Source: Spinactinospora alkalitolerans (GTDB lineage Bacteria; Actinomycetota; Actinomycetes; Streptosporangiales; Streptosporangiaceae). From it: 64,000 nucleotides of DNA. Positions 4,758-9,067 of this stretch are shown here, in pieces. Each line of letters starts with the position of its first letter. Positions within the stretch are counted from its first letter, which is position 1. The position numbers and the translations under genes were made by a program. The notes under the pieces are model-generated. The model was not told the origin of the DNA, did not search any database, and saw only the letters and a program-made list of their open reading frames with translations. Location: assembly GCF_013408795.1 (NCBI RefSeq), contig NZ_JACCCC010000001.1, forward strand, positions 2,976,001-3,040,000. Direction: 5' to 3'.

Positions 4758-5450
4758 GTGGCCTGCTCCGCCCTGTCCTTCCAGTGGCCGGACGGCACCG
4801 CCGTCTTCGACGGGCTCTCCCTCAGCATCGGCCGGGGCCGCACCGGCCTCGTCGGCGCCAACGGCACGGGCAAGTCCACCCTGCTAGGGCTGCTGGCCGG
4901 CCGGTTGCGCCCCTCCGAGGGGTCGGTGACCGTCGGCGGCAGCCTCGCCTACCTTCCGCAGAACGTCACCCTCGACACGGCACTACGCGTCGACCAGGCT
5001 CTGGGCATCGCCGAGCGGCGCACCGCGCTGCGCGCCACCGAGGCCGGAGACGTCAGCGAGGAGCACTTCGAGACGGTCGGCGACGACTGGGACGTCGAAG
5101 AGCGGGCCCTGGCGACACTGGGCTCGCTCGGACTCGGCGGCGTCGGACTGGAGCGCACCGTGGGCCAGATGTCGGGCGGGGAGACCGTTCTGCTGCGCCT
5201 GGCCGCGCTGCTGCTGCAGCGTCCCGACGTTCTACTGCTCGACGAGCCGACCAACAACCTCGACGTGGCCAGCGTGCGGCAGCTGACGAGCGCTCTGGAC
5301 TCCTACCGGGGCGCGCTCCTGATCGCAGGCCACGACCTGGCCTTCCTCGAATCGGTCGGTATCACCCGCCGGCTGCTCCTCGCGGAAGAGCTTCAGGAGA
5401 CCACCGCCGAAGAGGTCCGCGACCTGCTCGAAGCCTCAGAGGCCGGCTGA
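4758..5450 (+). CDS. single-domain ABC-F-like ATPase, probably truncated
   Basis: About 230 residues form one ABC nucleotide-binding domain: Walker A GANGTGKST, signature MSGGE, Walker B VLLLDEPTNNLD, and the H-switch in AGHD. The opening (SALSFQWPDGTAVFDGL) and the Walker B context are those of ABC-F proteins, ribosome-associated ATPases involved in antibiotic resistance or translation. ABC-F proteins normally have two such domains in about 530 residues. Here the frame stops after the first, with an unusual tail in place of the linker. It may be a decayed gene or a functional half-protein. The GTG start is uncertain. An 8-bp inverted repeat (5438-5445 and 5459-5466) overlaps the stop and may terminate transcription. 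Confidence 0.7.
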   Translation: MACSALSFQWPDGTAVFDGLSLSIGRGRTGLVGANGTGKSTLLGLLAGRLRPSEGSVTVGGSLAYLPQNVTLDTALRVDQALGIAERRTALRATEAGDVSEEHFETVGDDWDVEERALATLGSLGLGGVGLERTVGQMSGGETVLLRLAALLLQRPDVLLLDEPTNNLDVASVRQLTSALDSYRGALLIAGHDLAFLESVGITRRLLLAEELQETTAEEVRDLLEASEAG

Positions 5451-5961
5451 GGGTCCCGCGGCCTCTCGGGTCTCGAGCAGGGTGGCGCCGGCGGCCGGGC
5501 GGTCTCGGCCCCGTCCGGCCGCCGGCGTTCCCTCGGGTCCGGCGCGGAACGGACCGGCTACCTCCCTGTTCTTCTCTACGGAGTGAGGAGGAAATGTACG
5601 AGGTGGCTTTATCCGGCCGTTGCGGGGGTGGCTGCCCGCGGATGGGAAGGCCCTCTGCCTCTCAGGGGTTGCGCAAGGCCGTGGAATGTCTTTTTTGTCT
5701 GCTTCCTGTGGTTCCTCCCGCCTGCGCGTGAATCCGCACGCGTACAGGTCGTCGATCCGGACCACGAGCAGCACCAAGTCCGGAAAAGCCCTCAAAACGC
5801 GCTCCCGCAAGGCCGTACCCTGCTCTTCTGTCGGATGTCCTTCACAATTCTCTAATACGCCGCGACACGGATCGTTACTCCATGGTTATGGTGCGGCTGT
5901 TGATACTCCGGGTTTTGATCGAACTATACTGCGCCGGTAAGCGGTAAACTCGGGAGTTCAA
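5451..5961. other. gene-poor leader region of the Cys-rich cluster
   Basis: About 500 bp have no convincing conserved gene. GC content falls visibly towards the right (5830-5990 is much AT-richer than the flanks), as expected of acquired DNA. A 45-codon frame at 5594-5731 follows a GAGGAGG sequence and encodes a short Cys-containing peptide, but the spacing to its ATG is only 2 nt, so it is not called as a gene. Confidence 0.5.
5900..5930 (+). promoter_or_regulatory. candidate sigma-70-type promoter
   Basis: TTGATA at 5900-5905 and TATACT at 5925-5930 are separated by 19 bp, slightly longer than ideal. They sit 32 bp before the ATG at 5962, which has GGGAG as its ribosome binding site. Both hexamers stand out against the GC-rich background. 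Confidence 0.5.
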
Positions 5962-7131
5962 ATGGAAAGAAATGGAAAGCTATTCTTAGGATATGATGCC
6001 TCGTGCATCGACTGCTCCGACATCGCGCGGTCGATACGGCGTGGGGCCGGGAACCACATCGAGGTCGTATCGCTACGCTCCCCGCAAATGCGGAAATGGC
6101 GTCAGCAGGCTCTCGGCGACGACGCGCCGTGGGCTCCGACTCTGGTCCGAGCGACCGACGACACGGTCGAGGCGTGGACGGGATGGCAGATCGCCCCCGT
6201 TCTGTCCCGCCACCTCGACGCAAAGACCACGTGGCGTGTTCTCGGCGCACTCGGGGGAAATGCACTTGATAACAGAAAGAGGAAAGTCCCTCGCTTTGGA
6301 AGAAGCGCGTTCATTCGCGGCGCGGTTGGATCCATAGTCGGCCTCGGCGTACTGATGAAGGCGGGCCCGGCCGCCGCAGACACACCTGCCCGTTCCTCGG
6401 TGGCCAACGTCAACCCCGATGACGTTGAGGTGCTCCACAATGACCGCTTGATGGCGGCCGCCCGGCGCGGTCTCGCCACCTCGGACTTCGCAAATGTGGC
6501 TGACACGTATTCTTTGGTAAGCCCGGGCGGCGCTGCTCCTGCCTCCGCCGCCGAGCTACCGGACTCCGCTCTTCGGGAATCGGATGACGCAACGGGGGAG
6601 GTATCGCCGCCCGCCGGAGAACTCGAGGTCTACGGCGTGGAGATCGATCGAGGCGAAGGGATCACCGAGACCAGCGTGGTCTATTACCAGCACGAACAGA
6701 GTATGCTCGTGCATGTCAGGGTGCTCGATGAACCAGTCGACGGAATCAAGACGCGAGCCCACCGCCTCCACGTCGAACACGGCTCCTCTCCTGAGCACCC
6801 GTTCCTCTCCACTCTCGCGCACAGCATCAACGGAGCAGTCCCGACGCCGATCCCAGAAGGGGATCTGGATACTTTGTCCGCCGATCCATGCGGAGGCTGC
6901 AATCTGAGCTGCGGGCCCGGGAACCCGTGCGAGGAAAAGCATCTCACCGAGCAGTGCAACTGGGAGGCCACGTGGCAGTGCGTCGCCGGTTTGGGCGGCT
7001 GTGCACTATGCGTGACCTGCGGCGGCTGGTTCACGTGCATCGCCTGCGCACTGGCCTCGTGCCCCGCTGCCGTAGACGCATGCTGCACGTCCACCGACAC
7101 GCTCTGCGCGATCTGCGTCTATCCGACATAG
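5962..7131 (+). CDS. fulvocin C-related bacteriocin-type protein: thioredoxin-like head, Cys-rich tail
   Basis: This 389-residue protein has three parts. Residues 1-95 look like a thioredoxin-fold domain with a CxxC (CIDC at 15-18), a WAPTLVRA strand and a TGWQIAPVLSRHL helix. Residues 103-140 are basic and then hydrophobic (AFIRGAVGSIVGLGVLMKAG, ending AAA-D), resembling an internal export signal or membrane segment. After a polar stretch, the last 82 residues hold 16 cysteines in short C-x(2-6)-C spacings. From memory this matches actinobacterial proteins named bacteriocin fulvocin C-related. The layout also recalls halocin C8 precursors, whose Cys-rich toxin is the C-terminal part. Release of a Cys-rich peptide is inference. 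It leads a three-gene unit with the next two genes. Confidence 0.65.
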   Translation: MERNGKLFLGYDASCIDCSDIARSIRRGAGNHIEVVSLRSPQMRKWRQQALGDDAPWAPTLVRATDDTVEAWTGWQIAPVLSRHLDAKTTWRVLGALGGNALDNRKRKVPRFGRSAFIRGAVGSIVGLGVLMKAGPAAADTPARSSVANVNPDDVEVLHNDRLMAAARRGLATSDFANVADTYSLVSPGGAAPASAAELPDSALRESDDATGEVSPPAGELEVYGVEIDRGEGITETSVVYYQHEQSMLVHVRVLDEPVDGIKTRAHRLHVEHGSSPEHPFLSTLAHSINGAVPTPIPEGDLDTLSADPCGGCNLSCGPGNPCEEKHLTEQCNWEATWQCVAGLGGCALCVTCGGWFTCIACALASCPAAVDACCTSTDTLCAICVYPT

Positions 7132-7173
7132 CAGGGGCGGAAGCAAAGAATGAAGCAAGATGAGTGAATCAGC

Positions 7174-7392
7174 ATGCTAAAAAGCATTTGGAAGAACAGG
7201 GCCTATGGGGTCGCGATAGCCGGTTGCATCGTCATTGCTCTCGGAGTGAGCAACCTGGTGCAGCAGGACGCGATCATAGGCTGGCTCGAAATTGTCGGAG
7301 GCACAGTGCTCGTCGCCGGAACGATCATCAACTTTGTTCTGGAGGGGAGGAGGTCGGCGCGTCGGCGAGGGCAGGGCGAAACAGGCCGATGA
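7174..7392 (+). CDS. small two-helix membrane protein
   Basis: This 72-residue protein has two hydrophobic segments, YGVAIAGCIVIALGVSNLV and IIGWLEIVGGTVLVAGTII, followed by a strongly basic tail (EGRRSARRRGQ), so both ends are probably cytosolic. It lies 42 bp after the Cys-rich protein gene, and its stop overlaps the start of the next gene as ATGA, which implies translational coupling. Small membrane proteins beside bacteriocin genes are often immunity or export helpers, but nothing in this sequence proves such a role. No known family is recognised. Confidence 0.65.
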   Translation: MLKSIWKNRAYGVAIAGCIVIALGVSNLVQQDAIIGWLEIVGGTVLVAGTIINFVLEGRRSARRRGQGETGR

Positions 7393-8588
7393 GTACGGGC
7401 GTGCTCGTCGGTCCGGACGGTGGGCAGGAAGTCGTTCTTGCCCACCGAGCCCGGACGCGAGTCGGCCGACTGTGCTCCGGATACGCCGATCATGCGCTCC
7501 TGGTGACGGACTCGGGGCTGAATTCCGCCACCCCTCATGTGCAAGAGACGGTGGACCGGATGACGGCATCCGGAGTCCACACGGATGTCCTTTCACTGCC
7601 GTCGGATCAGACGGGAACCGTGGGATCGGCCCGCCTCGTCCGTGACCGCATGCGCATGACCGGCTCGCGTCTCTGCGTCGCACTCGGCGGCGGGTCCGCC
7701 ATAGACGCGGCGAAGCTCGCCCGCGCCGCCCACCATCGACCGTGGCTGCTCGATCGGGCCATCTGGCGGCGACCGACCGGGGTGCTCGCCCTCCCCGACT
7801 CGCGGGGCCCTGATTCCACACCCCACCTCATAGCCCTCTCGACCCGACCGGGCACCGCCGCGGAGGTGGCGTCCCGGGTCGCGCTCGCCCCGGACACCGG
7901 TACGTCGCGCCGGCTCCTGACGGGGGGATTCCTGAGGCCCACCATGGCCCTCATAGATCCGGACTGGAGCTCTACCCTGAGTCGCGAAGCGTGGTTCGAG
8001 TCTCTGAACGAGATCCTGTTCCGGATATTGGGGCCTTTTCTCATAACCCGGCGGAGCTCAAAGAGAATCGACCGCACTGCGGTGGAATGGATCGAAGAGA
8101 TCCTGGATATCGGTGCGCACCTCACGGACCATGAGTATCCGGCCGACGGCCAGCGCCTTCGGACAGCCGAGTTGAGCGTGTCGACGGCCACAGCAGGCCA
8201 CGTGCACCATTGGGCCCCGACGATGCCGGCATGGTGGTGCATCCAGAACACGGTGGTTGCGCATACCGGACTGTCCAAGGGGACGGCGACCTCCCGAGCA
8301 CTTCCGGTTCTGCTCGAAAAGATCGCAGACGGCGAGGAATCCCTTGGCTCCGCCGGTCGGCTGCGGACCATGGAGAAGTACAGGAGCTACGAGAAGTCGA
8401 TGCGGGAGGCGATCGGTGACTTCTGCGCCGCCGCCCGGAACGCCGATGCCGCCCATCACGGACGGCGGTCCGATGAAGAACTCGTCAAATGGGGGAATGA
8501 GACCCTGACGCTATGGGGGAGGCACCCCGGAATCGCGGCCTTGGGAGCCAAGGGTGTACGGGACGTCCTGCAGGAATCCGGATTCTGA
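7389..8588 (+). CDS. iron-alcohol-dehydrogenase-fold protein with degenerate metal site
   Basis: This 399-residue protein has the iron-containing ADH/glycerol dehydrogenase fold. LCVALGGGSAIDAAKL (about residues 95-110) is the NAD(P)-pyrophosphate site. STRPGTAAEVAS (about 151-162) is the equivalent of the usual T-x-G-T-G-S-E-V segment. PTMALIDPD follows as in the family. The metal ligands are altered: the expected D-x-x-x-H is E-S-L-N-E (about 204-208), and the later H-G ligand is replaced by KG in GLSKGTATS. ADH-fold proteins of this kind occur in RiPP clusters such as those for daptides (known). A role in maturing or reading the upstream Cys-rich protein is inference. The ATG at 7389 overlaps the previous stop. 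Much longer upstream versions of the frame cross that gene and are not credible. Confidence 0.72.
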   Translation: MSTGVLVGPDGGQEVVLAHRARTRVGRLCSGYADHALLVTDSGLNSATPHVQETVDRMTASGVHTDVLSLPSDQTGTVGSARLVRDRMRMTGSRLCVALGGGSAIDAAKLARAAHHRPWLLDRAIWRRPTGVLALPDSRGPDSTPHLIALSTRPGTAAEVASRVALAPDTGTSRRLLTGGFLRPTMALIDPDWSSTLSREAWFESLNEILFRILGPFLITRRSSKRIDRTAVEWIEEILDIGAHLTDHEYPADGQRLRTAELSVSTATAGHVHHWAPTMPAWWCIQNTVVAHTGLSKGTATSRALPVLLEKIADGEESLGSAGRLRTMEKYRSYEKSMREAIGDFCAAARNADAAHHGRRSDEELVKWGNETLTLWGRHPGIAALGAKGVRDVLQESGF

Positions 8589-8720
8589 CGAGAAGAACGG
8601 GACCGTCTGGTGAGGGCGGGTGCGGGTCCGGGAGTCGAAAGCTCCACCGCTTCGCCTCCGACGTCTCGGACGCGGTTCCGGCCGGCCCCGTTCCCTCGGG
8701 TCCGGCGCGGAACGGGCGGG

Positions 8721-8890
8721 CTACTCCCCCGGAGCCGCGGCGACATCGGCGGGCGCGCCGGTGCGGTGCTGCCGAGGGCTGATGCCGCGGACGCGCTTGA
8801 AGGCGGTGCTGAGCGCGAAGGAGCTGCCGTAGCCGACCCGCCGCGCGACCGCGTCGACGGTGGCGTCGGACTCGCGCAGCAGGTCGGCGG
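8721..8890 (-). pseudogene. C-terminal fragment of an AraC-family regulator
   Basis: Read on the minus strand this gives LLRESDATVDAVARRVGYGS followed by FALSTAFKRVRGISPRQHR and a stop. That is the second helix-turn-helix of AraC/XylS regulators, with its signature of Val-A-x-x-V-G-Y-x-S-x-x and F-K-R-x-x-G-x-S-P. The rest of the gene is missing, and the frame breaks near 8890, next to another fragment on the opposite strand. Confidence 0.75.
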
Positions 8891-8892
8891 CG

Positions 8893-9067
8893 CGAGGTCG
8901 AGGCCCGCGGACCCGAGGGGTGCGCCGTCCGGTTGAGCGCGGACTCCGCGGAGCCGGTGGTCCAGTACATCGCCGCGATCGCCGCGCTCGGCGCCGAGTT
9001 CACCCTTGACGCGCCGGAGGAGATCGTCGAGCGCGTATGGGATCTGGGACGCCGGCTCGCCGGGTGA
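8893..9067 (+). pseudogene. C-terminal fragment of a WYL/YafY-type regulator
   Basis: About 55 residues ending at the TGA at 9065-9067 read as V-R-L-S-A-D-S, then PVVQYIAAIAALGAEF, and end EEIVERVWDLGRRLAG. This resembles the C-terminal extension of WYL-domain regulators, where a positional Leu-Gly-Ala/P-x-E-L pattern precedes a final amphipathic helix. There is no start codon in context. It directly abuts the AraC fragment, so two broken regulators meet here. Confidence 0.5.

What the first reader, a model, noticed from the sequence alone, without database searches (positions are those of the whole stretch)
5962..8588. Three-gene cluster with a Cys-rich precursor-like protein and a metal-free ADH-fold partner
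The first protein joins a CxxC thioredoxin-like head, an internal export-like segment and an 82-residue tail with 16 Cys. It is followed by a coupled two-TM mini protein and a coupled iron-ADH-fold protein. The cluster is AT-richer than its surroundings and has its own promoter-like site. It could be an uncharacterised bacteriocin/RiPP-like system in which the head assists disulfide formation, the mini protein gives immunity and the ADH-fold protein modifies or binds the product. Resemblance to fulvocin C-related proteins and to halocin C8 layout is from memory; the joint function is inference.
Basis: partly seen in the sequence, partly recalled or inferred. Interest (0 to 1): 0.75.

Follow-up and report, generated by a model that had tools for sequence, protein, structure and literature searches.

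The report
Cys-rich secreted protein with daptide-type dehydrogenase
A rare three-gene cassette in actinobacteria pairs a large, cysteine-packed, probably exported protein with an enzyme related to the one that rewrites the last amino acid (threonine) of daptide peptides, and the protein always ends in threonine, which suggests an undescribed kind of end-modified, disulfide-rich bacteriocin that can be tested directly.

Summary
The three genes are real. A (5962-7131) has a CxxC thioredoxin-like head, an internal export-like segment and an 82-residue tail with 16 Cys. B (7174-7392) is a 72-residue two-TM protein. C (7389-8588) is a full Fe-ADH fold.

C's only strong family match is the daptide dehydrogenase DapC/MpaC (E=1e-45, 156 bits, below the cut-off of 300). 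It shares DapC's replaced metal site (Glu208, Arg212, Trp283, Lys297). [quoted passage not shown]

A-(B)-C recurs in three species (four loci, A 44-68% identical) with unrelated flanks. All four A proteins end in Thr, written with three different codons. Only 2 of 49 head relatives without C do so (Fisher p=5e-5). DapB is absent from all three genomes.

Best explanation: A is a protein-sized precursor of a disulfide-rich secreted effector, probably a bacteriocin, and C converts its C-terminal Thr to a ketone. Shown: anatomy, synteny, Thr invariance, DapC signature. Inferred: catalysis, export, antibacterial activity, B as immunity.

Head and export segment belong to a wider family with very variable tails, including "fulvocin C-related" proteins, whose model A does not match. 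New variant of a known kind.

The parts
5514..5566 (+). left copy of a 53-nt direct repeat bracketing the cassette (87% identical to the right copy)
   Evidence: 25-bp core found exactly twice in the whole genome
5962..7131 (+). gene A: 389-aa precursor-like protein with C-terminal Thr
5962..6270 (+). A head (aa 1-103), thioredoxin-like, CxxC at aa 15-18
   Evidence: AF2 model and structural matches for aa 1-91; CxxC invariant in A3
6280..6378 (+). A internal export-like (Tat-like, degenerate twin-Arg) segment, aa 107-139
   Evidence: homologous segment reads RRRFLR/SRGQFLK in relatives; weak TIGR02811 TAT match in two relatives
6379..6882 (+). A middle domain, beta-rich in the model, aa 140-307
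   Evidence: AF2 model, pLDDT about 60 in the strands
6883..7128 (+). A Cys-rich tail, aa 308-389, 16 Cys
   Evidence: Cys pattern kept in relatives
7126..7128 (+). codon of the invariant C-terminal Thr389
   Evidence: ACA/ACA/ACC/ACT in the four loci; statistics
7174..7392 (+). gene B: 72-aa two-TM mini protein
   Evidence: L033 counterpart about 35% identical, L035 counterpart by position and topology only
7389..8588 (+). gene C: 399-aa metal-ligand-free Fe-ADH-fold protein of DapC type
7686..7697 (+). C GGGS motif (aa 100-103), nucleotide-binding loop
   Evidence: invariant
8010..8024 (+). C Glu208-xxx-Arg212 in place of the first two metal ligands
8235..8279 (+). C Trp283, Asn287, Lys297: the other replaced ligand positions; Trp and Lys shared with every DapC aligned, Asn with most
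8677..8729 (+). right copy of the 53-nt direct repeat

Best explanation
A rarely distributed, probably mobile cassette makes a disulfide-rich secreted effector, most likely a bacteriocin, whose C-terminus is chemically altered. A is the precursor. Its folded thioredoxin-like head acts as a large leader and stays inside; the internal export segment carries the middle domain and Cys-rich tail across the membrane; proteolysis would free the tail. Before export, C, a DapC-type NAD-dependent and metal-independent dehydrogenase, oxidises the side chain of A's invariant C-terminal Thr; CO2 is lost and a C-terminal aminoacetone ketone remains, 46 Da lighter. Because no DapB (leader-binding RRE protein) is present in these genomes, C must recognise A directly, perhaps through the head. 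B, a two-TM protein, is the best candidate for immunity or for anchoring C. Shown: anatomy, conserved A-(B)-C cassette, invariant terminal Thr, DapC signature in C, lack of DapB. Inferred: the reaction on A, export route, cleavage, antibacterial activity, role of B.
For: C: NF041822 daptide_DH E=1e-45 against 1e-8 or worse for all other families, same in all four C proteins; DapC-specific replacement of the metal site; nearest relatives outside the cassette are DapCs in clusters with Thr-ended precursors. Literature: DapC decarboxylates the C-terminal Thr, lost its metal ligands, prefers NAD+ (PMC10036551, PMC12338566). A: Thr-ended in 4 of 4 loci with C against 2 of 49 relatives without C, three synonymous codons, only two Cys and this Thr invariant in the last 14 residues. 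Conserved order with unrelated flanks. Purifying selection, strongest on the head. Even Cys counts in 29 of 38 Cys-rich relatives, p=0.0017.
Against: DapB, needed for efficient daptide decarboxylation, is absent, and TfDapC alone did not modify the free precursor. C scores under the DapC cut-off. Only four loci in three species, so the Thr statistic rests on few lineages and was noticed in the same data. B is absent from one locus. The twin-Arg motif is degenerate (RSAF) in A. The tail fold is unresolved. No direct evidence of any antibacterial activity.
Confidence: 0.5

Rival explanations
1. A is a secreted Cys-rich bacteriocin-like effector, but C acts on something else or is a retained, non-catalytic partner (for example a chaperone or immunity factor); the terminal Thr is coincidental or structural.
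For: No DapB; C is below the DapC cut-off; other Cys-rich head proteins manage without any C.
Against: Thr is invariant while the three residues before it vary; the active-site signature and the NAD loop are kept in all four C proteins; C is under purifying selection.
Confidence: 0.25
2. A is not a toxin precursor but a membrane-tethered redox or metal-handling protein: the thioredoxin-like head and Cys-rich tail act together, and C supplies or uses reducing power.
For: CxxC head and Cys-rich tail are in one chain; the tail is partly hydrophobic; C has a dehydrogenase fold.
Against: The head is joined to many unrelated tails in relatives, several annotated as fulvocin C-related, which is unlike one enzyme; the Cys number varies between 14 and 16 among the four; no known metal or redox domain is recognised in the tail.
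Confidence: 0.15
3. The cassette is a decaying mobile insert without present function in this strain.
For: AT-richer island between direct repeats, flanked by what look like gene remnants; no promoter-like site found.
Against: All three frames are intact and dN/dS is well under 1 against L033 for A and C; the promoter scan does not cover all actinobacterial promoter types.
Confidence: 0.08

Closest known systems
Daptides (DapC/MpaC dehydrogenase with Thr-terminated precursors)
   Same: C is a DapC relative with the same replaced metal site; the neighbouring precursor-like protein ends in invariant Thr; two-TM mini proteins also occur near some daptide clusters.
   Different: The precursor is a 380-390 aa protein with a folded head and 14-16 Cys tail instead of a roughly 50-aa peptide; no DapB in the genome; no DapD, DapM or peptidase in the cassette; C below the curated cut-off.
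Bacteriocin fulvocin C-related proteins (NCBIfam NF033852)
   Same: Same thioredoxin-like head and R-x-x-F-L export segment; Cys-rich C-terminal tail with an even number of Cys in most.
   Different: The curated model spans their middle and tail and does not match A; their tails have mostly 8-12 Cys; most of those checked have no conserved same-strand downstream gene and none has a C.
Halocin C8 (comparison from memory only)
   Same: Remembered layout: exported preproprotein whose C-terminal Cys-rich part is the toxin and whose middle part gives immunity.
   Different: No sequence comparison could be made here; the thioredoxin-like head and DapC partner are not part of the halocin layout as remembered.
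Iron-containing alcohol dehydrogenases (PF00465)
   Same: C has the full fold and the GGGS nucleotide loop.
   Different: The metal ligands Asp/His/His/His are replaced by Glu/Arg/Trp/Lys.

Membership tests
Daptide RiPP cluster | DapC dehydrogenase at or above the curated score (NF041822, 300 bits) | tested here: not met
   155.9 bits, E=1.3e-45
Daptide RiPP cluster | DapC-type replaced metal site | tested here: met
   Glu208, Arg212, Trp283, Lys297 shared with every full-length DapC aligned; Asn287 is Thr in three of them
Daptide RiPP cluster | precursor with invariant C-terminal Thr | tested here: met
   4 of 4 A proteins
Daptide RiPP cluster | DapB leader-binding RRE protein (NF041823) | tested here: not met
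   absent from G000, G061, G021; found in G066 and G074 by the same search
Daptide RiPP cluster | short peptide precursors with the daptide leader motif | tested here: not met
   A is 389 aa without a daptide family match; a real daptide precursor does match NF041808
Daptide RiPP cluster | aminotransferase DapD and methyltransferase DapM | tested here: inconclusive
   none in the cassette; elsewhere in the genome not searched
Bacteriocin fulvocin C-related (NF033852) | match to the curated model (middle and tail) | tested here: not met
   no match for A, while L041 and L079 match at 5e-33 and 1e-25
Bacteriocin fulvocin C-related (NF033852) | shared head and export segment (not part of the model) | tested here: met
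   tblastn to 1e-15 on records annotated with that name
Iron-containing alcohol dehydrogenase (PF00465) | fold and Pfam match | tested here: met
Iron-containing alcohol dehydrogenase (PF00465) | Asp/His/His/His metal site | tested here: not met
   Glu208 and Arg212 by alignment with 3zdr; Trp283 and Lys297 by spacing and by alignment with DapC
Halocin C8 | sequence similarity of the Cys-rich domain | tested here: inconclusive
   no relevant Pfam or NCBIfam hit for the isolated tail; whether a halocin C8 model is in these libraries was not established

The most novel reading that the evidence does not exclude
A new class of protein-sized, disulfide-rich RiPP-like bacteriocins: a folded thioredoxin-like domain replaces the leader peptide, a stand-alone DapC-type enzyme converts the C-terminal Thr to a ketone without a separate RRE protein, and the head plus export segment is an exchangeable module for many unrelated secreted tails in actinobacteria.
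Probability: 0.4. Interest if true: 0.85.

Novelty: new variant of a known kind. Interest (0 to 1): 0.68.

Why it matters
If true, C-terminal ketone installation is not confined to short daptide peptides but is used on large disulfide-rich proteins, by an enzyme that recognises its substrate without DapB. That would be a handy tool for putting a reactive ketone on protein C-termini. It would also give a first biochemical handle on the 'fulvocin C-related' head family, which is widespread in actinobacteria and for which a full-text phrase search found one incidental mention.

Tried and rejected
Promoter search: no sigma-70-type site. Profile of A against the PDB: nothing useful. AF2 of A: head usable, export segment and tail mostly under pLDDT 50, so the fold of the tail is undecided. 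Foldseek with A: no E below 0.001. Viral-contig scans with A and C profiles: no relatives. Plasmid searches: C finds only annotated mpaC on two Streptomyces plasmids; A finds fulvocin-related proteins and a Rubrobacter plasmid protein. The family of G572 (385 genomes) searched with the C profile at E<1e-45: none, and the tool warns that this lacks a positive control. Mini proteins near daptide clusters resemble B in size and topology (two TM, 62-85 aa) but do not align significantly, so common origin is not claimed. A tree groups the four C proteins (100/99) but its outgroups are on long branches, so whether C lies inside or beside DapC is open. Papers: no full-text hit linking terminal Thr decarboxylation with bacteriocins, and none for halocin C8 with the terms tried.

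Full report
Observation. The three genes exist as described. A is 389 aa at 5962-7131, B 72 aa at 7174-7392, C 399 aa at 7389-8588, starting at the ATG that overlaps B's stop. A has CIDC at residues 15-18 in its head and 16 Cys in residues 308-389. B has two predicted TM segments. G+C is 64% against 72-73% on both sides. The claimed promoter-like site was not found. The A-B gap is 42 nt, so only B-C is tightly coupled.

What C is. Pfam gives Fe-ADH (E=1e-16) and the predicted fold matches Fe-ADHs over its length (Foldseek E=4e-14). Among curated families one stands out: NF041822, the daptide dehydrogenase, E=1.3e-45 over residues 37-397, against about 1e-8 or worse for all others; all four C proteins match it. 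The score (156 bits) is below the equivalog cut-off of 300, so C is not filed as a daptide DapC. The metal site is gone: against 3zdr the ligand Asp aligns with Glu208 and the first His with Arg212, and by the 14-residue spacing the other two His correspond to Trp283 and Lys297 (inference from established knowledge of the fold). DapC sequences recovered from real daptide clusters (precursors ending LT or VT) have the same Glu, Arg, Trp and Lys, and Asn at 287 (Thr in three). A tree groups the four C proteins with full support but leaves their place relative to DapC open.

What DapC does. From the literature (PMC10036551; [quoted passage not shown] TfDapC is predicted to have lost the metal ligands, prefers NAD+, works without added metal, and without DapB shows no activity on the free precursor but minimal activity on an MBP fusion.

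The link to A. Homologues of the whole of A next to a C homologue occur in two other species of the same family: two loci in Nocardiopsis sp. MG754419 (G061; L033, L034; named through) and one in G021 (L035). Order and strand are kept; a B-like two-TM protein sits between A and C in three of four. Outside the cassette the loci share nothing at the level tested except a generic helix-turn-helix gene in two of them. In 343 genomes of the family the only strong C matches are these four; 395 genomes of the class add only daptide-grade matches. All four A proteins end in Thr, written ACA, ACA, ACC and ACT. In the last 14 residues only two Cys and this Thr are invariant. Among 49 other head-family proteins without C only two end in Thr (Fisher p=5e-5; 4.5e-4 if the four loci count as three lineages). 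Full-length Rubrobacter relatives, in which no C was detected on the short contigs held, stop soon after the CC motif and lack the Thr extension. I noticed the Thr pattern in these same sequences after the DapC match suggested looking, so the p-value does not come from an independent set.

The head family. The head, residues 1-103, is modelled as a thioredoxin-like domain; the structural matches for residues 1-91 are mostly of that superfamily, with modest Z (4-5.4). The head and export-like segment also begin proteins annotated 'bacteriocin fulvocin C-related', but the curated model of that family covers their middle and tail and does not match A. Cys counts after the export segment are even in 29 of 38 Cys-rich members (p=0.0017), which suits disulfides. 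Most fulvocin types checked have no conserved same-strand downstream gene, so the A-(B)-C cassette is a special development.

Mechanism proposed. C oxidises and decarboxylates Thr389 of A inside the cell; the head acts as leader and stays behind; the Cys-rich tail is exported, disulfide-bonded and released. DapB is missing from all three genomes while the same search finds it in two daptide genomes, so recognition must be direct or use another protein. DapD and DapM are not in the cassette, so the predicted end product is the ketone; distant aminotransferases were not excluded. B may give immunity; in the strain lacking B in one locus, the other locus has it. Every step of this paragraph except the absence of DapB is inference. 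Confidence in the whole chain is about one half.

Mobility. The cassette lies between 53-nt direct repeats (87% identical) whose 25-bp core occurs exactly twice in the 6.68-Mb genome. In L035 the cassette lies between two related transposase fragments. Only four loci in three species were found, so it is rare and probably moves between strains (inference).

Verdict. Neither an artefact nor an ordinary ADH operon. It looks like the first step of daptide biosynthesis applied to a large disulfide-rich precursor, but it is not a daptide cluster by the tests made.

Noticed in passing
window 5514-5566 and 8677-8729: 53-nt direct repeats, 87% identical, bracket the cassette; the 25-bp core occurs exactly twice in the whole genome, on the same strand. 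They may mark the borders of an insertion.
   Followed up: partly
window 4758-5450: ABC-F-like ATPase gene of 230 aa that looks internally deleted: homologues in relatives match in two blocks about 1 kb apart.
   Followed up: partly
window 8735-8990, minus strand: Appears to be a C-terminal fragment of an AraC-type regulator, a likely gene remnant at the right border (read from the sequence; matches).
   Followed up: no
L103-L121 (family f60, apparently Rubrobacteraceae; G710:C1:2230508-2250092): The same thioredoxin-like head and SRGQFLKGVGG export segment precede many unrelated tails, four copies within about 20 kb in one genome; the 591-aa protein of L115 ends in what looks like a peptidase domain.
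   Followed up: partly
L093 5996-8505 (G061 C113): A DapC-like ADH gene next to a class-III aminotransferase gene in a genome without DapB: a possible further DapB-free pathway.
   Followed up: no
L052 5535-7029 (G021): A second head protein with an 18-Cys tail followed by a protein with three predicted TM segments, and no C.
   Followed up: partly
L017, L022, L023, L025-L027, L030-L032: A group of head proteins that have lost the R-x-x-F-L motif; most keep four tail Cys and L022 has none in its tail.
   Followed up: no
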